A DNA stretch of 39,782 nt. Origin: Gammaproteobacteria bacterium UBA1119. GTDB taxonomy: Bacteria > Pseudomonadota > Gammaproteobacteria > Pseudomonadales > Azotimanducaceae. The stretch's first letter is position 1, and every line of letters begins with the position of its first letter. The stretch spans positions 1 through 39,782 of the forward strand of contig DCBA01000053.1 in NCBI GenBank assembly GCA_002313255.1, read 5' to 3'. A program made the position numbers and the translations under genes. The notes below the pieces were generated by a model, which searched no databases, was not told the origin of the DNA, and was given only the letters and a program-made list of their open reading frames with translations. Of this stretch, positions 26,965 to 39,772 are shown piece after piece.

Positions 26965-27381
26965 ATGGAAGGCGTAACGTTTCCGATCGTCGTACATACG
27001 TTGATCTTCGATGAAGGGGGTCGACTGTTGTTACTCCGTCGAAAGGGAACGGGGTTCATGGATGGATACCTAGGACTGCCCGGAGGGCACCTCCAAGCGG
27101 GCGAAACCGTGTCCAACGCGGCAATGCGGGAATGCAAAGAAGAAGTCTGTATCGAGGCAAAAGCGATACAGCCACTGGTCGTTATGCCGTTCATGGGTGG
27201 CGTTGACTTCATTTTCGAAGCACATGAATGGACTGGTGTAGCAGAGATCGGGGAACCCGACAAGTGTTCAGAAATTGGCTGGTTTGTCCCGGAGACGCTA
27301 CCGCGCGATGCTGTCCCGTTTGTGCCGAAAGCACTCGAGTTACGAAGGCAAAAGGTCTGGTATCACGAATATTTCGACTAA
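26965..27381 (+). CDS. Nudix hydrolase
   Basis: The 138-residue protein starts at ATG 26965. The Nudix box is [21 protein letters not shown], which fits G-x5-E-x7-R-E-x-x-E-E, so the metal-binding Glu residues are present. The position after the last Glu pair has Val-Cys where many have x-Gly. Nudix enzymes hydrolyse nucleoside diphosphates linked to another group. The substrate cannot be inferred, though [12 protein letters not shown] suggests the MutT/DNA-or-nucleotide clean-up type. The frame is open upstream to 26812, but that part overlaps the divergent pseudogene. It precedes malate dehydrogenase by 80 bp. Confidence 0.88.
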
Positions 27382-27461
27382 GGGATTGTACGCATTGGCA
27401 TTCGAACAAGGTTAGAATCCGCCGCCTTTTGGGGCGCACGAATAGAGGGGGTGAAAGAACC

Positions 27462-28433
27462 ATGACGGATCCAGTACGCATTACGGTAACCGGGGCAGCT
27501 GGCCAGATCGGTTACGCGTTGGTTTATCGGATAGCGTCGGGCGCGATGCTTGGCGCGAAACAACCGATCGTCTTGCAACTTCTTGAGATTCCCCCCGCGA
27601 TGGACGCGCTTGAAGGCGTCGTGATGGAACTCGATGACTGCGCGTTTCCCCTGCTGCACGCCGTTGAAACCTCGGATGATCCGGATGTTGCATTTCGGGA
27701 CACGGATATCGGCCTGCTCGTAGGATCGCGACCGCGGGGTCCAGGCATGGAACGCAAGGAACTACTCGAAGCCAATGCGGCGATTTTTTCCGTGCAAGGC
27801 AAAGCGCTCAATGATGGTGCGTCGCGAAACGTTAAGGTACTCGTGGTAGGAAATCCGGCCAATACGAATTGCCTCATTGCGCAACGAAATGCGCCCGATC
27901 TCGATCCCAAGAACTTTACGGCCATGACTCGCCTTGACCATAACCGTGCCATCGCCCAACTTGCGTCCCGGACTGGCCATTCGGTTAGCGAAATCAAAGG
28001 CGTGTCGATCTGGGGAAATCACTCGGCGACCATGTATCCGGATTTGCATTCAGCCACGGTGCAGGAAAGCCCTGTGATGGACCTCGTCGATATGGATTGG
28101 TACAAAAACGATTTCATTCCGACTATTCAGCAACGCGGCGCCTCTATTATCGAAGCGAGGGGCGCTTCAAGCGCGGCGTCGGCCGCCAATGCCGCCATCG
28201 ATCACGTACACGACTGGATCGATGGTACGAGTGAGGTCGTTAGCATGGGTGTATTCAGCGATGGAAGTTACGGCATCGAAGAGGGGCTGATCTATTCCTT
28301 CCCTGTCATTTGCGAAGACGGCGATTGGCGCATTGTTCAAGATCGCCCGATCAACGAGTTCAGTCGCCAAAAAATGACCGATACAGAGAACGAATTAATC
28401 GAAGAACGTGACGCCGTGGCGCATCTTTTCTGA
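27462..28433 (+). CDS. mdh: Malate dehydrogenase (NAD-dependent, cytosolic type)
   Basis: Malate dehydrogenase interconverts malate and oxaloacetate in the TCA cycle. From ATG 27462, preceded by GAGGGGG, the product is 323 residues. It has the dinucleotide-binding [17 protein letters not shown], the mobile-loop region [15 protein letters not shown] with substrate-binding arginines, [11 protein letters not shown], and the catalytic His in [13 protein letters not shown]. These are the motifs of the group that includes cytosolic and many bacterial enzymes of about 325 residues, distinct from the lactate-dehydrogenase-like Mdh. It ends 4 bp before the convergent selenoprotein gene. Confidence 0.95.
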
Positions 28434-28437
28434 GGGG

Positions 28438-29322
28438 CTATTCGGTCCTGACTCTGGCCGCGGCTCTTAGAGCTTTTCTTTGCGCTTTCCTTTCCTCGCC
28501 CTTGAGTCGAAGTTTTTCTCGATCTTCGTTGCGCACCTCGAGGTAACGTTCGCGCCAGGTTTCGTCACCGGCCCACTGGAATGGACTGGCGACCGTTGAT
28601 CCAGCCGTTGTCGCCTCTTCGAGAACATCGAAGCTGTGGGATACGACGGAGTGCTGCATCTGCGTGTCATATGGCTTACCACAGGGATTGCCGAGAGGGA
28701 AATCGGTGAATAGGAAACGGGGCACGCCGCAATGTTCAACGATATCTCGCGCAGACCCAAGAATAACCGTTGGCATTCCGTTAGCTTCGAGGTGCCGGGC
28801 GATCAAACACACGGTTTGATGGCAGACAGGTCACAATGGGACGAGAAGCGCGATGTTGGCATTGTCCTGGAGACAACGATCAAGGATTTCTGGAGCGTCT
28901 GCTTCCATCGTTCGGCGATGACTGTATTCAGTTGGTGCGCAATAAAAGTTTGTGCAAATGGAACCGATCCGGTGGTCTCGCACCAATTGCTTTAATGTCT
29001 CTAACGGGAAGTAGGACCCAAGATCGTTCAAATGCGTCGCTTGCCTATCCCAGGAAAGGTCGTTGGCGTAAAGCCTTTCGGGAATTTTCGAGGTTGTTTG
29101 TATGGCGACTTCGCGAACGTCGTCGGCGTCGCGATCGTAAAGCGCCGCCGTGGTGATGAGGGCGATTCTGGACTCTCGAAGCGGACGGACGAGCGGTGTA
29201 AACGGAATTTCATCAAAGTGCGCCCACGTGTACGGAACCTCAAAGCCTTGGGCTTCGTAGTACGCACGTGTGCGTGCCATGTATTGAACGGCTTGACTCA
29301 TCATGTGCAATAAATCATACAC
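28438..29322 (-). CDS. GrdB-family-like selenoprotein with in-frame UGA (Sec164)
   Basis: This is one 294-residue gene interrupted by a single UGA at 28833-28831. Upstream, 163 residues end in IALLVPL. After the UGA the same frame continues as PVCHQTVCLIARHLE, then GMPTVILGSARD and RFLFTDFPLGNPCGKPYD, typical of the family annotated as glycine/sarcosine/betaine reductase selenoprotein B family. Homologues, as I recall them, have Cys in CPVCHQ at the UGA position, so here it reads U-P-V-C, a redox UxxC motif. A hairpin suited to SECIS follows the UGA. Start is GTG 29322 or one of the ATGs at 29304/29301, none with a good ribosome binding site. Function is unknown; classic GrdB cleaves C-N bonds, but no GrdA, GrdC or GrdE partner is in the window. 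Conventional annotation would split it into 28831-29322 and 28438-28812. Confidence 0.85.
28802..28820 (-). promoter_or_regulatory. Candidate bacterial SECIS hairpin
   Basis: In the transcript, ATCAAAC (28820-28814) pairs perfectly with GTTTGAT (28808-28802) around a CGUGU loop. The helix begins 10 nt after the UGA, placing the apical loop 18 nt downstream. Bacterial SECIS elements lie within the coding sequence at about this distance and have a small loop, often with G-U at the tip for SelB contact. A GU is present in this loop. Confidence 0.65.
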
Positions 29323-29352
29323 TCAGACAACGAGGTTATGGGGGACGTTCAA

Positions 29353-30618
29353 ATGGCGGGACCACTAGAGGGAGTCTGTGTCATAGAACTTGCGTTAGCG
29401 ATTCAAGGCCCGGCAGTGGGGTTTTTCTTCAGCGCCATGGGGGCGGACGTGGTCAAGGTTGAACCGCCGATGGGCGATGCGAGTCGATACCATCGAGGCG
29501 TCAACAACACCCTACCCGCCGCAGCGTACGGTTCGCAGTTCGTTGCGATGAACAAGGGGAAACGCTCGGTTTCCGTGGACCTAAAAACGGATTTGGGGCT
29601 AGAGGTGATGGAACGGTTGCTGGCGGGTGCCGATGTGTTTGTGAGCAATTATCGAGCGTCTGCGTTAGCCCGCATGGGGCTTGAACTAGAAGAGGTTACG
29701 AAGCGATATCCGAGACTGGTTGTGGGCCATGTGAATGGATTCGGACCCAAAGGACCTGAAGCGGATAAGGCCATGTTGGATGGAGCAGCGCAGGCGCGAG
29801 GGGGTATTACCGGTCTTTCGGGGGTGGGCGGCGAAGTTCCCATGCCGCCGGGGGCTACCGTTGCGGATCATGCGGGGGCGATGCAAACGGCGCTCGCCTG
29901 TGTCACGGCATTGTGTGCGCGCGCAAAAACGGGGCGTGGGCAGCTCGTTCAAACGTCTTCGTTGGGAGCACAACTGTGGCTACAAATGTGGGAGTTGCAG
30001 CACTCGTTCATGACGGGTGTACCCCTCACCCGTGAAGGTTCGCATCATCCGAACCTCAAAGCGCCATACGGTGTGTACATGACTAGAGATGATGTGCCCA
30101 TCATGTATGTGGCTGCGATGACCGACGTGTCATGGACCGCGTTTTGGTTGTTTGTCGACATGCCCGAGGCGTTGCTTCTTGAGCAATGGGACACGCCAGG
30201 AAAGCGAATCGGAGTTGCGGGATCTGATGATGGATTGGCCGAAATTCGCGATCTCATGACGACAGCGATTGCACTTCATACGATGGAAGAGTGGGAAGCG
30301 TTTTTCTCGACCGAACCGGAGATCATTTGGGAGCGGGTTCGTAATCACGAGGAAGTCCGTACTGATCCACAAAACATCGCTAACGACTACGTGGTCGATA
30401 TCGATCTGCCGGGGTCAGGAAAAACATCGACTGTAGGGACGCTTATGGCGTTCAGCGATACCCCAACCAAAGCTGCAGGCCCACCGCCGCCACTGGGAGA
30501 ACACACTGAAGAGGTGATGGCGGCGCTCGGTTTCGACTCAGCAGAAATCAAAAGCGTGCGGGATCACTCCGAAGCTGAGAAGGAAGCTATGTTGATTGCG
30601 CTGCTTGGTGACAATTGA
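29353..30618 (+). CDS. Class III (CaiB/BaiF) CoA-transferase
   Basis: Class III CoA-transferases move CoA between carboxylic acids through an aspartyl-CoA thioester. I start at ATG 29353 (421 residues) because GGGGA lies 7 nt upstream, whereas ATG 29338 has its GAGG only 2 nt away. Family features are PLEGVCVIELALAIQGP, MGADVVKVEPP, NKGKRSVSVDLKT, and the catalytic Asp172 in ATVADHAGAM. The C-terminus has the typical GEHTEEVMAALGF. It is divergent from the selenoprotein gene with a short shared intergenic region, followed by the small cysteine protein and acyl-CoA ligase on the same strand. Substrates cannot be inferred. Confidence 0.92.
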   Translation: MAGPLEGVCVIELALAIQGPAVGFFFSAMGADVVKVEPPMGDASRYHRGVNNTLPAAAYGSQFVAMNKGKRSVSVDLKTDLGLEVMERLLAGADVFVSNYRASALARMGLELEEVTKRYPRLVVGHVNGFGPKGPEADKAMLDGAAQARGGITGLSGVGGEVPMPPGATVADHAGAMQTALACVTALCARAKTGRGQLVQTSSLGAQLWLQMWELQHSFMTGVPLTREGSHHPNLKAPYGVYMTRDDVPIMYVAAMTDVSWTAFWLFVDMPEALLLEQWDTPGKRIGVAGSDDGLAEIRDLMTTAIALHTMEEWEAFFSTEPEIIWERVRNHEEVRTDPQNIANDYVVDIDLPGSGKTSTVGTLMAFSDTPTKAAGPPPPLGEHTEEVMAALGFDSAEIKSVRDHSEAEKEAMLIALLGDN

Positions 30619-30661
30619 TTTTGTACAATCTCGGCTCAAGCGAAGGATAGGGGTAGCGGTG

Positions 30662-30967
30662 ATGGCAGCCTTAGCGGCAGGTAAGCGATTAAAAAGTGCA
30701 GTTTGTGCGACGGAAATTATGGTCATTGCGGCGCCCGATGGGGAGGTCGAGTTGGAGTGCGGTGGTGTACCCATGACGGACGGGGAGGGCAATACCGGGG
30801 GCAGTGTCGATGCTAACTATGCTGAAGGCACGGCATTGGGCAAGCGTTACGTAAACGAAGACGGTGGCCTTGAGCTGTTGTGCGTCAAACCGGGTGATGG
30901 CTCGCTATCGACGGGCGGAGAAGCACTGAAGGTCAAGGACGCCAAGAAGTTGCCTAAGACGGACTAG
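30662..30967 (+). CDS. Small three-cysteine protein upstream of an acyl-CoA ligase
   Basis: The 101-residue protein starts at ATG 30662 (a GTG directly before it is an alternative), with GGGG about 9 nt upstream. Cys15 (KSAVCATEIMVI), Cys33 (ELECGGVPM) and Cys74 (ELLCVKPG) are the conspicuous residues. I recall similar short proteins with a CGG-x-PM motif next to acyl-CoA ligases in other bacteria, but I know no function for them. The spaced cysteines suggest metal or Fe-S binding or a redox role; this is inference. It lies 43 bp after the CoA-transferase and 79 bp before the ligase, probably in one operon. Confidence 0.75.
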   Translation: MAALAAGKRLKSAVCATEIMVIAAPDGEVELECGGVPMTDGEGNTGGSVDANYAEGTALGKRYVNEDGGLELLCVKPGDGSLSTGGEALKVKDAKKLPKTD

Positions 30968-31046: not shown

Positions 31047-32552
31047 ATGAACATCATGATGCTGTTGGAGATGGCCGTGTCCGGGTGTCCGGAAAGGGTC
31101 GCTTTTGTTGATCCAGAGATGGACGCATCGATCAGTTACCAAGAACTCTTTGATTCGGCGGGCAACATAGCTTCGATCCTTGGAGCCACGGATGTCGCGC
31201 GGTTTGCGATGCTCGACGTCTCTAATATCGGTATCCCCATCGGCCTCTTTGCGAGCAGTTGGGCTGGAATACCCTATGTACCTCTCAACTATCGCCTCAC
31301 CGATCCTGAGATCGAAAGCCTTCTCGACCGAATTACCCCGGCGTATCTGGTCACCGAACCGGAGAGGGTCGCAGGGTTCCACGATCGGAAGGGGGTCCAA
31401 GTATCGTCTCGCAGCGATTTTGTTGCGCTTGCTCGTGAAACGGAGGGAACACCGGATGCCTGGTCGATGGACCCTGAAGACACGGCCGTTTTGCTGTTCA
31501 CCAGCGGAACGACGGGGGCGCCAAAAGCTGCCGTACTGCGACAAAAACACCTCGTATCGTACATTCTCGGATCAGTCGAGTTCATGGGAGCTGACGAAGA
31601 GGAGGCAGCGCTGGTGTGCGTTCCGCCGTACCACATTGCTGGGATTGCAGCAGTCTTAAGCTCGGTTTATTCCGGTCGAAGAGTCGTTCAACTGGCGAAT
31701 TTCAGTGCCGAGAAATGGGTTCAGTTAGCGCGTGACGAGAAGATCACGACGGCGTTCGTTGTGCCGACCATGCTCTCGCGTATTGTCGAAGAGCTTGCTG
31801 GTGCCACGAACGCGGACATGCCGCATCTGCAGTCGCTTTCATACGGTGGCGGAAAAATGCCGCTCTCAGTGATTCAGCGCGCGATGGAATTATTTCCGGG
31901 GACCGATTTTACGAATGCCTATGGACTCACCGAAACGAGTTCAACCATTACCGTTTTGGGACCGGATGAACACCGACTTGCCTCCGCGAGCGATGAGGAA
32001 GACGTCCAGCGTCGCTTAGTTTCGGTAGGCGCTCCACTACCCGGTATCGAACTTGAAATACGCGACGAGGAGGGAGCCGTGCAACCTGCTGGTTCGCGTG
32101 GAGAGATCCACGTACGAGGCGAGCAAGTCTCGGGGGAATATGAAGGGCGTGGAAGCGTCGTCGATAGCGATGGCTGGTTCCCGACCCGAGATGCTGGTTT
32201 CGTTGATGGCGAAGGTTTCCTGTTTATCGATGGACGAGCAGACGATGTTATTGTCCGGGGCGGCGAAAACATGTCCCCGGGCGAAATTGAGGACGTCCTA
32301 CTCGAGCATCCGGCGGTCAGCGATGCTGCGGTGGTGGGTATCCCGAGCGAAGAATGGGGTGAAGCCGTGGTCGCCGCTATCGTTATTTCGGATGCGGTGA
32401 CGACGGAAGAACTGCAAGCCTGGGTCAAAGACCAAATGCGTTCGTCTCGCGTGCCGGAGCGGCTGGAATTCTGGGACGAACTGCCTTACAACGAGACTGG
32501 GAAATTACTCCGTCGGGTAGTAAAAGAAAGGCTAGCGCAGCTGATCGATTAG
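31047..32552 (+). CDS. AMP-forming acyl-CoA synthetase/ligase
   Basis: The 501-residue enzyme belongs to the ANL superfamily and activates a carboxylic acid to acyl-CoA with ATP. It has the P-loop-like LLFTSGTTGAPKAAVL, the adenine-binding YGLTETSS, the ATP-binding DGWFPTRDAGFVD with the ribose-binding Asp, the hinge FLFIDGRADDVIVRGGENMSPGEIE split at Asp-Arg equivalents, and the catalytic Lys in NETGKLLRR. AAGGA lies 7 nt before the start. It ends with 4 bp overlap into the convergent CoA-transferase gene. The substrate is unknown; neighbours point to a short or branched acid degraded via CoA esters. Confidence 0.92.
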   Translation: MNIMMLLEMAVSGCPERVAFVDPEMDASISYQELFDSAGNIASILGATDVARFAMLDVSNIGIPIGLFASSWAGIPYVPLNYRLTDPEIESLLDRITPAYLVTEPERVAGFHDRKGVQVSSRSDFVALARETEGTPDAWSMDPEDTAVLLFTSGTTGAPKAAVLRQKHLVSYILGSVEFMGADEEEAALVCVPPYHIAGIAAVLSSVYSGRRVVQLANFSAEKWVQLARDEKITTAFVVPTMLSRIVEELAGATNADMPHLQSLSYGGGKMPLSVIQRAMELFPGTDFTNAYGLTETSSTITVLGPDEHRLASASDEEDVQRRLVSVGAPLPGIELEIRDEEGAVQPAGSRGEIHVRGEQVSGEYEGRGSVVDSDGWFPTRDAGFVDGEGFLFIDGRADDVIVRGGENMSPGEIEDVLLEHPAVSDAAVVGIPSEEWGEAVVAAIVISDAVTTEELQAWVKDQMRSSRVPERLEFWDELPYNETGKLLRRVVKERLAQLID

Positions 32553-33778
32553 GTGGGAGGGCGATCTACGATGACGCCCGAACTTTCTAGTTCTAGGATT
32601 CTTTCGTCCGAATAACCCAGCCACTCGCTTAGTATCTCGTGATTGTTTTCCCCTAACTTTGGGCAGGACGTCCAGTCGGCGCTCGAAATCCCGTTCATTT
32701 TGATTGGATTTCCGGGAATGGGGGTCGGTCCGCGCTCGATCGGTACGAAAAAATTACGAGCGATGGTCTGTGGATCGGACGTCATATCGGGTGTGGCACT
32801 CACCGGGCCAGCTGGGATATTTGCTTCTTGGAGAATAGCTGTCGCCTCGGTTTTACTGTAACGCTGTGTCCACGTTTCGATTAGCTGATCAATTGTGTGA
32901 TGTGTCTCGACGCGTTCTTCGAGACCTGCGGTCGCATCAAGGGATCCTGGGATTGTCGTGCAGATCGCTTGCCAATCCCGATCGTCTCGGCAAGCAATGG
33001 CTACCCAGTCGTCGTTTCCAGCACAACGGTAAACGCCGCAGGGGGCCATGTTGGGATGACGGTTACCGAACCTTTCCACCGATTCACCTAGCTGATGTTC
33101 AATCAGCCAAGGTCCACAAAAGGCAGTCGCTCCTTCGTGTAGGGACATTTCGACCAGCGCGCCACGCCCAGTTTGCTGGCGCCTTCGTAATGCCGTTACG
33201 ACGGCCGATGTTGCGTTGAGGGCGGCGATCGGGTCGGGCAACGCCATTGCCGTGTTCCGCGGTTCATCGGGCCCGTACCCCATGACGTCGGTCAGCCCGG
33301 AAAGCGGTTCGACCGTCGGTCCGAAAGCCACGCGATTTCTATAGGGTCCGTCCATACCGTAACCGGGCATGCTGACGTAGATGATTTTCGGGTTCGCTTC
33401 GGATAGCACCGGATAATCGAGACGCAAAGAAGGCATCGCCCGAGCGCTGAAATTTTCCATGACGACGTCTGCGTTTTTCACGAGTTCCAGAAACGTGGCC
33501 CGTCCTTCACCGGTCTTGAGGTTTACGGCCACACTCTTCTTATTGCGCTGTAATTTTACGAATACGGCGTTGACGTTGTAGGGATCGTCTCCGGGAGTAC
33601 CACCGATCCAACCCCCGATTGGTGTCGCCCGACCGTAACTGCGGGGTCCTCGACCTGTAGGTGATTCAATCTTCACAACGTCTGCACCCAAGTCGGCGAG
33701 GATGCGGGTTGCAAGGGGTCCCGCCCAAACGTGCGTTAGATCGAGGATGCGGATCCCGTTTAATGGTCCTTTAGCCAT
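32549..33778 (-). CDS. Class III CoA-transferase, Asp-containing member of pair 1
   Basis: From ATG 33778 the product is 409 residues (an upstream extension to 33820 lies over the previous gene). Features are GIRILDLTHVWAGPLATR, LGADVVKIESP, NKKSVAVNLKT and, at the active site, Asp182 in LPDPIAALNA. The start overlaps the preceding CoA-transferase-like gene by 8 bp, so the two are translationally coupled. That partner lacks the Asp, so this one probably supplies the catalytic residue of a heteromeric enzyme. A homodimeric enzyme remains possible. Confidence 0.9.
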   Translation of the reverse strand: MAKGPLNGIRILDLTHVWAGPLATRILADLGADVVKIESPTGRGPRSYGRATPIGGWIGGTPGDDPYNVNAVFVKLQRNKKSVAVNLKTGEGRATFLELVKNADVVMENFSARAMPSLRLDYPVLSEANPKIIYVSMPGYGMDGPYRNRVAFGPTVEPLSGLTDVMGYGPDEPRNTAMALPDPIAALNATSAVVTALRRRQQTGRGALVEMSLHEGATAFCGPWLIEHQLGESVERFGNRHPNMAPCGVYRCAGNDDWVAIACRDDRDWQAICTTIPGSLDATAGLEERVETHHTIDQLIETWTQRYSKTEATAILQEANIPAGPVSATPDMTSDPQTIARNFFVPIERGPTPIPGNPIKMNGISSADWTSCPKLGENNHEILSEWLGYSDERILELESSGVIVDRPPT

Positions 33779-34796
33779 GGGCTGATTCGGGCTCGGTAAG
33801 CTGAAGCTCAGTAAGAGCATCCCCGTGGATCTTCCACGCGGGTCGGGGCGATTGGATGGTCGAGCGTCCGTTGGTGACGGAGTGCCAAAACTCGCGTTGT
33901 TTAAGGTGCGGGTCGTCTAATACTTCGGACAGGGTGTGCACCACACCGACGGGGACTCGACATTCAGCGGCCCGATGTTCGATCTCGGAGCGGGTCATGT
34001 GCGCAATCGTGTCTGCAATGATTCTGTGCAGTACGTCCCGGTTTTGCGAACGAAGATCGTTACTTTTGAAACGCTCGTCGATGAGTAGTTCGGGACGCTT
34101 TAAGAAAATGGCGAAAGCGTCCCAAAAGGTTGGAACGATGTTGAGATATGCCCAACCGTCCATACACCGGAATAAGTTGGTCGGCACGACGGTCCAGAAG
34201 TCGTTGCCATGTCTGGATCGAATGGTCTTGGCACAGTGCCACATCACTGTGGTGAACTGACTCAACGCCATCACGACCTCGAGCATGCCGATGTCGATAG
34301 TGTTTTTCTGCTTAGCGATACGACATGCATTGGCCGCCGTGTAAGCGAACGCTCCACTTTGAAATTCCGGATAGTGCCCGGGCAACGTAAGCGGTGCGCG
34401 ATCCGGATCTCCCATTAGGTTTGTATACCCACCCATCGCCAAGATCACGCTAGGGGTTGCTTGCCAGTTGCGCTTGGGACCGGTCGCGCCAAACGGCGTG
34501 ATCGAAACCTTGACTGGAGTCTGCCAGCCGTTAAATCCAAGCGCTACAAGCGAATCTGCGGTAGCGGCCTCCGCAATAACAATATCCGCTTCAGCTGCGA
34601 GTTGAGCGATTAAGCTGGGATCGCTGGTATCGACGCGGCGCTTGGCGGCATGCAGGTAGTAATCAGAGGCGGCTTGACTGACCCAACCCGGGGACGCCGG
34701 CGGCGATTCGATCCGGACGACGTCGTATCCGGATTGTGCAAAAAGCCGCCCGCAATAGCCGGCCGCAAAACCACCGATTTCAAGTACGCGATCCAT
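33771..34796 (-). CDS. Short class III CoA-transferase-like protein lacking the catalytic Asp (pair 1)
   Basis: The 341-residue protein has the family N-terminus, but its ends are shortened (MDRVLEIGGFAAGYCGRLFAQ, then YDVVRIESPP). Other recognisable parts are AKRRVDT, VSITPFGATGP and MGGYTNLMGDPDRAPL. Where the catalytic Asp should be (as in D-x-x-G), it has HYPEFQSGAF, with Phe145 aligned and a Glu beside it. It is about 70 residues shorter than its partner. It follows the enoyl-CoA hydratase gene by 12 bp and overlaps the next CoA-transferase by 8 bp. Most likely it is a non-catalytic or regulatory subunit; an alternative nucleophile (the Glu) is conceivable. Confidence 0.85.
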   Translation of the reverse strand: MDRVLEIGGFAAGYCGRLFAQSGYDVVRIESPPASPGWVSQAASDYYLHAAKRRVDTSDPSLIAQLAAEADIVIAEAATADSLVALGFNGWQTPVKVSITPFGATGPKRNWQATPSVILAMGGYTNLMGDPDRAPLTLPGHYPEFQSGAFAYTAANACRIAKQKNTIDIGMLEVVMALSQFTTVMWHCAKTIRSRHGNDFWTVVPTNLFRCMDGWAYLNIVPTFWDAFAIFLKRPELLIDERFKSNDLRSQNRDVLHRIIADTIAHMTRSEIEHRAAECRVPVGVVHTLSEVLDDPHLKQREFWHSVTNGRSTIQSPRPAWKIHGDALTELQLTEPESAHG

Positions 34797-37313: not shown

Positions 37314-38540
37314 TTACGGATCGAGTGCGGCAAGCACTTCGTCGGTATGTTCACCCAGTTTGGGAGCGGGTCGATAGATCGACCATGGCGTTTTTTCGAA
37401 CCGGTAAGGCGCTCCGGGGTACGTGATCGTGCGGTCAATGTCCTCGTGACGTACCGGAACGTGGAAACCGCGTTCCTTGAAGTGCTCATCCTCGAATGCT
37501 TCCTCGGGCGAGTTGACGGCACCGGCGGCAAGTCCGGCACGTTGACAACCGAGAAAGAAGTCTTGCGCCGAAACGCTTGACGCGATCAACTGCAGCGCCG
37601 CGCGACCGGCTCCGAAAATCGCCGTGATGGCATCGTCTTGACCGATAAGAGATAGATCAAACGGCCCCTGCCACTCGGCGCCCATTTCGAGAAAGACCGC
37701 TTCTGGAAGTTGCTGTTCGAGTCCGAGACTATTAAGCCAGTCGTATAAAGCCTCGAATTCATGGGGAAATCGGGGCGGAACGCCCGTATTTGCGTAGCGT
37801 CCGTCGGCACATAGTTGCTGGGTTTCGCCTGATGGACTAACGGACGCGTGGCGCCCGGTTTGTCGCTGTACGGTCTTTTGCGCCACGAGCCAGGAGTAGG
37901 TCGCGGCTTCGGTCGATACGTTGGAGGCTGCGGTCATGGACACATCGATGAACTGCCCCTCCCCTGATACACCGCGATAGAGTAGAGCGGTCAGGGCCGA
38001 CAGGTAGGCAAAGTGAGCCGCTGTCTGATAACCCTGTAGTGGACCCCGAATCGGAGGGAGTGAGTGGTCGTCGTAACCGCAACTCCATGGTGGTCCAGAT
38101 GTTGCCATGATGGTCAGGTCCGTCGCTGGTAGATCACTCCGTGGATCGTTTCGACCGTGGGTCGTTACCGCGATGTGGATAAGATCGGGTTTGATTTCGG
38201 ACAAGGTGGGGTAATCGAGCTGCAATTTCGAGAGCCGATCGCGCGGTTCTGCTTCGATCAGCACATCTGTTGTTGCGATGAGCTTTCGAAAAGTCTCGGC
38301 ACCGTCGGGGTCTTCTAGGTCCAGGGTGATGGCACGTTTGCTGCTGTGGTAGTGCCACCAGTAGAGGCTGCGGTCCGGACCCGGTTTGTTGTCGAGAAAC
38401 GGTGGGTAGTCTCGACTTGGATCCCCGCCGGGTGGTTCAGCCAAAATCAGGTCAGCGCCCATGTCGGCCATCAATTTACCAGCGAATGCGATACGCTCAT
38501 TAGCCAGTTCGACGATCCGCAAACCGCTAAGGGCTGTCAT
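37314..38540 (-). CDS. Class III CoA-transferase-like protein lacking the catalytic Asp (pair 2)
   Basis: The 408-residue protein keeps the family frame: GLRIVELANERIAFAGK, MGADLILAEPPGG, SSKRAITLDLEDPDG, and GEHTDEVLAALDP at the end. At the active site it reads RGPLQGYQTAAHFAYLSA, with no Asp (Gln169/Gly170 fall near the D-x-x-G position). It overlaps its partner 38537-39772 by 4 bp (ATGA). Loss of the Asp suggests it serves as a second subunit beside the Asp-containing partner. It converges on the amidohydrolase; the 69 bp between hold nothing I can recognise. Confidence 0.88.
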   Translation of the reverse strand: MTALSGLRIVELANERIAFAGKLMADMGADLILAEPPGGDPSRDYPPFLDNKPGPDRSLYWWHYHSSKRAITLDLEDPDGAETFRKLIATTDVLIEAEPRDRLSKLQLDYPTLSEIKPDLIHIAVTTHGRNDPRSDLPATDLTIMATSGPPWSCGYDDHSLPPIRGPLQGYQTAAHFAYLSALTALLYRGVSGEGQFIDVSMTAASNVSTEAATYSWLVAQKTVQRQTGRHASVSPSGETQQLCADGRYANTGVPPRFPHEFEALYDWLNSLGLEQQLPEAVFLEMGAEWQGPFDLSLIGQDDAITAIFGAGRAALQLIASSVSAQDFFLGCQRAGLAAGAVNSPEEAFEDEHFKERGFHVPVRHEDIDRTITYPGAPYRFEKTPWSIYRPAPKLGEHTDEVLAALDP

Positions 38541-39772
38541 ATGACCCCCTCGGAGGCGAGTTGAATGACCTCGTCCTCGTTATACCCGAGAACGCGGGTC
38601 AGTACGTCCATGGTGTGCTCGGAGAGACACGGCGCGCCGTGAGTCATCTCCCAGTCGGTTTTCGAGAAATGCACGGGTTGTCCGTCGACTCGGACCTCAC
38701 CCATCTCGCGATGACGAACGGTCGGCCAGAGCCCAAACGATCCGGTTGCCGGGTCGCGATCGATTCGTTCTTCGGGTGTAAGGACGGCGGCTACAGGAAC
38801 TCGGACGTTTTGGAGCGCGGTTTCGATCTCATATTTCGTTTGGTCTTCGGTCCAGCCGCGCAGGCGTTGATCAAGCGCGTCTTGATGGTTGAGCCGATCC
38901 TCGAGCGTGGCGAACGCTTTGTCTGTTAACCAGGGACGTTGAATAACGGAACAGAGCGAATCCCAATCCGATTCGTTACGGCACGCGATCGCCACCCATT
39001 CGTCGTTGCCGAGGGTGGGGTAAATACCGTGGGGTGCCATGGGCGGCCATTGGTTACGATTGGAATGCGGCGAACCTTCTCGCCGCATTGGATTTGCATT
39101 GATGGTCCAATCCAGCAGCGCGGGCCCGTGGAGAGTTAACGCCGATTCTGTACAAGCCAGATCGACCCACTGGCCCTCGCCCGTCTTTTGACGGTGCAAT
39201 AAGGCCAACATGATAGCCATGGCCATGTAGTGGGCGCCGGTGTGATCCATAAATGAATAGCCCCAGCCGGCGGGCTCTAAACCGGGGAGTCCAGAGCTGA
39301 AAGTAAGACCCGAGACGGCCTGCACAATGGGGCCCCAGGTTCGAAAGTCGCTATAGGGTCCGACGTGTCCGAAGCCACAGTTGGACACGTAGACGATGTC
39401 CGGCTTGATGGCTTTGAGTTGTTCGTATCCAAAGCCCCATCTTTCGAGTACACCCTTGGCGAAGTTTTCGCTCACGACATCGGATACTCGAACGAGTTCA
39501 GCGAGAATTTCCTTTGCCTTTTCGTCGCGAAGATTAAGCGTAATACCGAGCTTGTCGGTGTTGTGATTATTGAATGCACCGCCAAGGTCAATGCCTCGCC
39601 GATCATCGATAAACGGCGCGGTGCCCCGGAGAATATCCCAACGGCCGTCGCGGACCGGATCTTCGATTCGGATGACCTCCGCGCCGAATGACGCTAACCA
39701 TTTGGTTGCGCCGGCGCCCGCTAGCTGGCCGGTAAAGTCGCAGATCCGGAAGGAAGACAAAGCTCCCGGCAT
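38537..39772 (-). CDS. Class III CoA-transferase, Asp-containing member of pair 2
   Basis: The 411-residue product shows FRICDFTGQLAGAGATKWL, FGAEVIRIEDP, TDKLGITLNLRDEKAKE, and the catalytic Asp176 in YSFMDHTGAHYMAMA. GEGQWVDLA and the C-terminal LSEHTMDVLTRVLGY complete the family pattern. It begins 10 bp from the right window edge, so upstream genes of its operon may lie outside. The 4-bp overlap with the Asp-lacking gene downstream couples their translation. Confidence 0.92.
   Translation of the reverse strand: MPGALSSFRICDFTGQLAGAGATKWLASFGAEVIRIEDPVRDGRWDILRGTAPFIDDRRGIDLGGAFNNHNTDKLGITLNLRDEKAKEILAELVRVSDVVSENFAKGVLERWGFGYEQLKAIKPDIVYVSNCGFGHVGPYSDFRTWGPIVQAVSGLTFSSGLPGLEPAGWGYSFMDHTGAHYMAMAIMLALLHRQKTGEGQWVDLACTESALTLHGPALLDWTINANPMRREGSPHSNRNQWPPMAPHGIYPTLGNDEWVAIACRNESDWDSLCSVIQRPWLTDKAFATLEDRLNHQDALDQRLRGWTEDQTKYEIETALQNVRVPVAAVLTPEERIDRDPATGSFGLWPTVRHREMGEVRVDGQPVHFSKTDWEMTHGAPCLSEHTMDVLTRVLGYNEDEVIQLASEGVI

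What the first reader, a model, noticed from the sequence alone, without database searches (positions are those of the whole stretch)
28438..29322. Probable new selenoprotein: GrdB-like protein with UPVC motif read through UGA
One UGA (28833-28831) is the only in-frame break in an otherwise continuous 294-codon gene. Both sides carry family sequence in the same frame, and the UGA falls where homologues, as I recall them, have the first Cys of CPVCHQ. A plain pseudogene would more likely show frameshifts or a UAA/UAG, and less likely a UGA at a redox Cys. The context is an acyl-CoA gene neighbourhood without the anaerobic glycine reductase partners, so the role of this Sec protein would be different from classic GrdB.
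Basis: partly seen in the sequence, partly recalled or inferred. Interest (0 to 1): 0.85.

Follow-up and report, generated by a model that had tools for sequence, protein, structure and literature searches.

The report
Marine PrdB-like selenoprotein gene
An apparently interrupted gene in a probably marine bacterium is really an intact gene for a selenium-containing protein of a family already known to be common in the sea, although what that family does in oxygen-using bacteria is still unknown.

Summary
One in-frame UGA (28833-28831, minus strand) is the only break in a 294-codon gene, and sequence evidence says it is read as selenocysteine. The genome has tRNA-Sec, selA, selB and selD. The UGA is at the same column in 80 of 80 fetched named-genome loci. 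All 120 listed database homologues have Cys there. A hairpin after the UGA shows compensatory changes, and its tip pair is kept in only 2 of 15 Cys forms. Both sides are under similar purifying selection.

"New" and "GrdB-like" need correction. The nearest curated family is PrdB, well below its cut-off, and UxxC "PrdB" selenoproteins were reported as abundant in marine metagenomes in 2005 and 2008. What stands out is five UPxC paralogues, oxidase genes and no detected PrdA or GrdA (no positive control). An acyl-CoA ligase sits divergently upstream in 13 of 81 loci, none of them remote. It is probably a PrdA-free selenolate reductive enzyme of unknown substrate.

The parts
28438..29322 (-). PrdB-like selenoprotein gene, 294 codons counted from GTG 29322 (ATG at codon 7/8 is the likelier start), terminal stop TAG
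28831..28833 (-). UGA codon 164, read as selenocysteine; motif U-P-V-C-H-Q
   Evidence: TGA in 80 of 80 named-genome loci and in 29 of 29 relatives' loci (the two sets overlap); Cys in 120 of 120 listed database homologues
28802..28820 (-). Predicted bacterial SECIS apical hairpin: 7-bp stem AUCAAAC/GUUUGAU with loop CGUGU, starting 10 nt after the UGA
   Evidence: 93.7% standard pairs over 72 distinct N-free sequences against 17-31% when slid; compensatory changes; tip pair kept in 2 of 15 Cys forms; folds in the window RNA, z -1.72; no Rfam match
27228..28433 (+). Lactate/malate dehydrogenase family gene, convergent neighbour (functional link not shown)
29338..30618 (+). CoA-transferase family III (CaiB-type) gene, divergent neighbour 15 bp away (functional link not shown)
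31047..32552 (+). AMP-binding acyl-CoA ligase-type gene, divergent, 1.7 kb upstream; recurs near the gene in some other genera (functional link not shown)

Best explanation
The gene encodes a full-length selenoprotein. The UGA at codon 164 is decoded as selenocysteine by the genome's own SelA/SelB/SelD/tRNA-Sec system, helped by a SECIS hairpin that starts 10 nt after the UGA. The protein belongs to a large PrdB-like family with an active-site UPVC (or CPVC) motif on a predicted alpha/beta core, and it is one of five UPxC paralogues in this genome. Inferred, not shown: the selenolate attacks a carbon-heteroatom or other electrophilic bond of a small substrate, and the Cys three residues later resolves the intermediate as a selenenylsulfide that a cellular dithiol then reduces. 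This would be PrdB-type chemistry without the pyruvoyl partner PrdA, perhaps within acyl or acyl-CoA metabolism. I put the selenoprotein part at about 0.97 and this chemistry at about 0.4.
For: Sec machinery in the same genome: tRNA-Sec 69.2 bits, selB 403.7 and selA 546.1 bits on the same contig, selD 279.6 bits. Column: TGA in 80 of 80 named-genome loci and 29 of 29 relatives' loci; 148 of the 150 places listed carry one TGA (tool's tally; the column itself was read only in fetched loci), the two others being a Cys form and a piece beside a run of N; Cys in 120 of 120 listed homologues. RNA. Selection: dN/dS 0.09-0.18 before and 0.10-0.16 after the UGA in five same-genus comparisons. A PrdB-like match and selA co-occur: 71 both, 10 match only, 11 selA only, 53 neither, of 145 genomes (counted by hand; test). 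Five UPxC paralogues. Model pLDDT 91.8. Selenolate and pyruvoyl mechanism proposed for D-proline reductase: passages of PMC10298544.
Against: No proteomic, selenium-labelling or expression evidence exists here. The hairpin of the window alone is only modestly stable (9 of 200 shuffles fold as well), no Rfam family matches, the outermost pair forms in 54 of 72 sequences, and 3 of 72 break the 18-26 pair without compensation. The '1 TGA' tally of the genome search is not proof by itself: one such place (L151) is a Cys form whose TGA is its terminal stop. The co-occurrence with selA is driven mainly by taxonomy; within the window's own family it is 70/10/6/4, p = 0.045. Ten genomes have a match but no selA at E <= 1e-40; seven are under 90% complete, three are 90-93%. 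No structural relative of known function was found, so the chemistry rests on a distant PrdB resemblance and the UxxC motif.
Confidence: 0.88

Rival explanations
1. Pseudogene: the UGA is a nonsense mutation and the downstream half is decaying.
For: The frame is formally interrupted under code 11.
Against: Same UGA in six other same-genus genomes and in loci from records titled as other phyla; dN/dS similarly low on both sides; Cys at the column in 120 of 120 listed homologues.
Confidence: 0.01
2. UGA recoded as Trp or another residue (genome-wide code change), or a programmed readthrough unrelated to selenium.
For: An in-frame UGA inside an intact family could in principle be read by other means; this is a general possibility, no call supports it.
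Against: The aligned residue is Cys in 120 of 120 listed homologues, not Trp; tRNA-Sec, selA, selB and selD are present; the hairpin shows compensatory changes and its tip pair is kept in only 2 of 15 Cys forms; UGA ends the homologous gene in several relatives.
Confidence: 0.01
3. It is a selenoprotein whose UxxC is a thioredoxin-like thiol/selenol redox couple (detoxification or repair of oxidised small molecules), not a PrdB-type bond-cleaving enzyme.
For: UxxC spacing; two heme-copper oxidase genes; no PrdA detected (no positive control); no partner shared by remote copies.
Against: Sequence kinship is to PrdB/GrdB, and the predicted alpha/beta fold with many conserved residues outside the motif fits a substrate-binding enzyme better than a simple redox protein; the ligase, ECH-like and amidohydrolase genes near some orthologues fit metabolism.
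Confidence: 0.35
4. It is a D-proline reductase subunit with an unrecognised pyruvoyl partner elsewhere in the genome.
For: Best curated match is PrdB.
Against: 82.6 bits against a cut-off of 300; no PrdA match in the genome and one weak 31-bit match in 145 relatives, both without a positive control; no PrdA-like gene noticed next to it.
Confidence: 0.1

Closest known systems
PrdB, selenoprotein subunit of clostridial D-proline reductase (TIGR04483)
   Same: Best curated family match, spanning residues 41-250 with the Sec column inside it; UxxC motif.
   Different: 82.6 bits against a cut-off of 300; 294 residues against a 238-position model; no PrdA detected (no positive control); host genome has oxidase genes and five paralogues.
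Marine 'Proline reductase PrdB' selenoprotein family of the Sargasso Sea and GOS surveys (PMC1088965, PMC2398784)
   Same: Marine, UxxC, PrdB assignment (pfam07355 in GOS), Sec forms common (42 and 235) with fewer Cys homologues (1 and 110). Probably this very family.
   Different: I saw passages with counts and motifs only and had no sequences from them to align, so identity is inferred.
GrdB, glycine/sarcosine/betaine reductase selenoprotein B (PF07355, TIGR01917/TIGR01918)
   Same: Distant homology to the C-terminal half of the GrdB models.
   Different: Below the Pfam and NCBIfam cut-offs; 294 residues against models of 431-435 positions (NCBIfam); no GrdA match (no positive control).
GrdB-like FarB of monofluoroacetate dehalorespiration (Synergistota, PMC10838667)
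   Same: Precedent, as proposed in that paper, for a GrdB-type selenoprotein used on another carbon-heteroatom bond (passages).
   Different: Anaerobic host, four-gene operon; no sequence comparison was made here.

Membership tests
Bacterial selenoprotein | In-frame UGA at a column where homologues have Cys | tested here: met
   TGA in 80 of 80 and 29 of 29 relatives' loci read, Cys in 120 of 120 listed database homologues
Bacterial selenoprotein | SECIS hairpin immediately downstream of the UGA with a small G-containing apical loop | tested here: met
   72 distinct sequences, compensatory pairs, loop CGUGA in 55 of 72; weaker in Cys forms; feature described in PMC1088965 passages. Against: no Rfam match, z only -1.72 for the window
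Bacterial selenoprotein | tRNA-Sec, SelA, SelB and SelD in the genome | tested here: met
   each over the family cut-off
Bacterial selenoprotein | Selenium shown in the protein | not testable with these tools
   needs proteomics or 75Se labelling
PrdB (TIGR04483) | Score above the curated equivalog cut-off | tested here: not met
   82.6 bits against 300; the five places in the genome score 77-130
PrdB (TIGR04483) | PrdA pyruvoyl-forming partner in the genome | tested here: inconclusive
   no match in own genome, one weak 31-bit match in 145 relatives, but no positive control rang
PrdB (TIGR04483) | UxxC active-site motif | tested here: met
   UPVC; UxxC given for D-proline reductase
GrdB (PF07355) | Score above the Pfam gathering cut-off | tested here: not met
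   17.5 bits joined, 20 bits N-terminal part, cut-off 22
GrdB (PF07355) | GrdA partner in the genome | tested here: inconclusive
   no match, but no positive control rang

The most novel reading that the evidence does not exclude
A PrdA-independent branch of the PrdB/GrdB superfamily in oxygen-using bacteria: stand-alone UPxC selenoenzymes, expanded to several paralogues per genome in these Pseudomonadales and present as Sec forms in genomes labelled as other phyla, that carry out selenolate-based reductive cleavage on substrates other than D-proline, possibly linked to acyl-CoA metabolism. The name 'D-proline reductase' given to them in databases and metagenome surveys would then be a misannotation of an undescribed metabolic capacity.
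Probability: 0.4. Interest if true: 0.62.

Novelty: new member of a known kind. Interest (0 to 1): 0.36.

Why it matters
It restores a truncated-looking gene to a full-length selenoprotein, and it gives Sec/Cys pairs (for example this gene against the Bradyrhizobium forms) with which the family's function can be tested. If the PrdA-free reading holds, the 'proline reductase PrdB' selenoproteins counted among the most abundant in the ocean are not proline reductases, and their real reaction is an open, testable question.

Tried and rejected

Function from neighbourhood: ORFs around 81 copies (80 loci and the window) were clustered. From 44 non-redundant loci 157 neighbouring ORFs were chosen by script; I dropped 45 by hand to stay within the residue limit and scanned 112, from 43 of the 44 loci. 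The commonest Pfam families (short-chain dehydrogenases, luciferase-like monooxygenases) each hit 5 of 112; only the first 25 of 102 families are shown, and some ORFs may be antisense shadows. Contexts of some Cys forms and of the four paralogues differ from one another.

Absence of PrdA/GrdA: no positive-control genome rang, so absence is not proven. Literature: the searches gave no paper in the held open-licence library on PrdB-like selenoproteins in aerobic Gammaproteobacteria beyond the marine surveys and reviews; subscription journals and preprints are not held. Sampling: the 80 loci are the best of 150 matches to a Sec-form query, and the 120 homologues the best of 6966, so neither is a random sample of Sec against Cys; the Cys loci are mostly from one genus (g186).

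Errors made and corrected: my script put 5 of 30 loci on the wrong strand (L025, L031, L043, L045, L046); one search repeats the reading with the strands given. A pattern gave misleading motif counts; one search replaces it with an alignment.

Full report
WHAT IS THERE. On the minus strand of 28438-29322 there is a frame of 294 codons whose only internal stop is a TGA at codon 164 (28833-28831); it ends in TAG. GC3 is alike on both sides (0.57 and 0.56). The frame can start at GTG 29322, but several relatives begin near codon 7 or 8, where the window has ATG. The joined protein's best NCBIfam match is PrdB (TIGR04483), E 2.8e-23, 82.6 bits; both halves match alone, the first weakly. Pfam GRDB is just below its cut-off. 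The genome itself is unnamed; the same-genus contigs have the lengths of records titled Pseudomonadales or Gammaproteobacteria MAGs, some from ALOHA samples. That they are marine is my inference from these titles.

IS IT A SELENOPROTEIN? Machinery: the window's genome (2.78 Mb, 139 contigs, 93.5% complete) has tRNA-Sec (ARAGORN, anticodon tca), selB and selA next to it on contig C18, and selD on C86, each over the family cut-off.

Column: 81 of 145 genomes (own included) have a match, and 148 of the 150 places listed have one TGA inside; the list was cut and the column was read directly only in fetched loci. In the 30 loci fetched (the window itself, L019, and 29 from relatives) the TGA is always the U of UPVCHQ (one Cys codon holds an N). 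In 80 loci from named records (titles: Pseudomonadales and other Gammaproteobacteria, Deltaproteobacteria, Myxococcota, Chloroflexota, Actinobacteria, Alphaproteobacteria) it is TGA in 80 of 80; the two sets overlap. The two listed places without TGA are a Cys form (CPVCHQ) in G033 and a fragment beside a run of N in G088. A protein search found 6966 relatives; all 120 listed have Cys at this column. A tally of '1 TGA' alone can mislead: one such place (L151) is a Cys form whose TGA is its end.

RNA: 10 nt after the UGA starts a 7-bp hairpin. Over 72 distinct N-free sequences (of 74 distinct, 81 rows) 93.7% of pair cells are standard, against 17-31% when slid by 1-3 nt, and 88.7% on average (maximum 90.5% in 1000 shuffles) when 3' halves are dealt among sequences. 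Pairs change on both sides: C-G/T-A at 14-30, G-C/A-T at 17-27, A-T/T-A at 18-26. The G-C to A-T change is seen in the window's genus, L074 (also that genus, but a 57% identical copy), L083 and L135, which look like separate lineages, though no tree was built. In the A-T to T-A case (L060, L064, L066, L073, L077) residues T and S become S and G together, so the amino acids follow the RNA. Against: three of 72 have an uncompensated T-T there, and the outermost pair forms in 54 of 72. In 15 Cys-form loci, mostly one genus, 69.5% of cells pair, and the tip pair C19-G25, kept in 72 of 72 Sec sequences, is kept in 2 of 15. The fold of the window alone is modest (-11.2 kcal/mol, z -1.72); Rfam has no match.

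Selection: against five same-genus copies dN/dS is 0.09-0.18 before and 0.10-0.16 after the UGA. Co-occurrence of a PrdB-like match with selA over 145 genomes is 71/10/11/53 (both/match only/selA only/neither; counted by hand), Fisher p 2e-18, but this is mostly taxonomy; inside the window's family it is 70/10/6/4, p 0.045. Taken together, read-through as Sec is as sure as sequence alone can make it.

WHAT KIND OF SELENOPROTEIN? The genome has five PrdB-like places, each with one TGA, with motifs UPVCHQT (this one), UPVCHQS, UPNCTR, UPQCQL and UPLCTR. They score 77-130 bits against a PrdB cut-off of 300. PrdA and GrdA were not found, and PrdA gave one 31-bit match in 145 relatives, but no control genome rang in these searches, so absence is likely, not proven. 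Two heme-copper oxidase genes suggest aerobic respiration. The AlphaFold2 model (50-sequence alignment) has mean pLDDT 91.8 and pTM 0.91, an alpha/beta protein with the Sec just before helix 165-180, after strand 157-161. No solved structure matches convincingly.

SURROUNDINGS. The window holds glutamate synthase, 3-dehydroquinate synthase, penicillin-binding and PriA genes on one side and five CaiB-type CoA-transferases, an AMP-binding ligase, an enoyl-CoA hydratase-like gene and an amidohydrolase on the other. The gene is oriented against both direct neighbours. Recount: a divergent AMP-binding ligase of the same cluster lies 0.3-2.2 kb upstream in 13 of 81 loci, seven of the window's genus (window included) and six beyond it at 59-62% identity (L059, L061, L062, L065, L067, L091); L059, L065 and L091 also keep the hydratase-like and amidohydrolase genes. 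Five more (L060, L064, L066, L073, L077) have a ligase of that cluster about 5.1 kb upstream on the same strand. In L059 the ligase carries a glyoxalase domain at its end. Most remote copies have none of these, and among 112 neighbours scanned from 43 non-redundant loci no Pfam family hits more than 5. So an acyl-CoA link is possible for the nearest orthologues, but it may be mere shared descent of gene order.

HOW IT PROBABLY WORKS. Shown: UGA conserved, Sec machinery, SECIS hairpin, Sec/Cys exchange, family. Inferred: the Sec selenolate is the nucleophile and the Cys of UPVC resolves it, with a dithiol as reductant, as proposed for D-proline and glycine reductases (passages of PMC10298544). 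Without PrdA the pyruvoyl adduct of proline is not available, so the substrate should be another one. GrdB-like FarB for fluoroacetate is a proposed precedent for re-use (passages of PMC10838667). A plain thiol/selenol redox role is the main rival.

WHAT IS KNOWN. 'Proline reductase PrdB' with UxxC was third among the known selenoprotein families in the Sargasso Sea (42 genes, 1 Cys homolog there; passages) and had 235 Sec and 110 Cys members in GOS (passages). A 2006 survey lists proline reductase selenoproteins also in Anaeromyxobacter and Geobacter (passages of PMC1794560). PrdB is listed as a known family in 2022 and 2026 reviews (passages). Homologues in databases are named 'D-proline reductase (dithiol) PrdB' or 'glycine reductase', some in Bradyrhizobium. 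I could not align the survey sequences, so identity with this family is inferred. Hence: a new member of a known kind. What I did not find described (searches, open-licence PMC only) is the PrdA-free, multi-paralogue occurrence in oxygen-using bacteria.

Noticed in passing
L129, L130, L131, L132 (G000 contigs C118, C46, C19, C37): Four further PrdB-like genes with an in-frame UGA in the same genome; two (L130, L132) have C-terminal parts roughly 100 residues longer, and the residues after UPxC differ between paralogues.
   Followed up: partly
L134 (genome G354; match 98% identical to the Bradyrhizobium protein P0031): A Cys form whose DNA still keeps 6 of 7 pairs and the CGTGA loop of the SECIS hairpin, suggesting a fairly recent Sec-to-Cys change.
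   Followed up: partly
L159 (G033:C181): A Cys form (CPVCHQ) inside the otherwise Sec-rich family of the window's genome.
   Followed up: partly
G000:C18:93-3470 and G000:C86:2184-3086: tRNA-Sec, selB and selA lie in a row at the end of one contig; selD is elsewhere, in an open frame of 731 aa that may be a fusion.
   Followed up: no
window 29338-30618, 32549-34796, 37314-39772: Five CaiB-type CoA-transferase family III genes lie within 10.5 kb.
   Followed up: no
window 30596-30967 and L059:7645-9681: A 123-aa ORF beside the ligase, with relatives near the gene in 10 of 81 loci, has no Pfam match; in L059 the ligase has a C-terminal glyoxalase domain.
   Followed up: partly
L085 and L086: Loci titled Gammaproteobacteria and Chloroflexota have the same 51-base stretch from the UGA and matching neighbour clusters; one record is probably mis-binned.
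   Followed up: no
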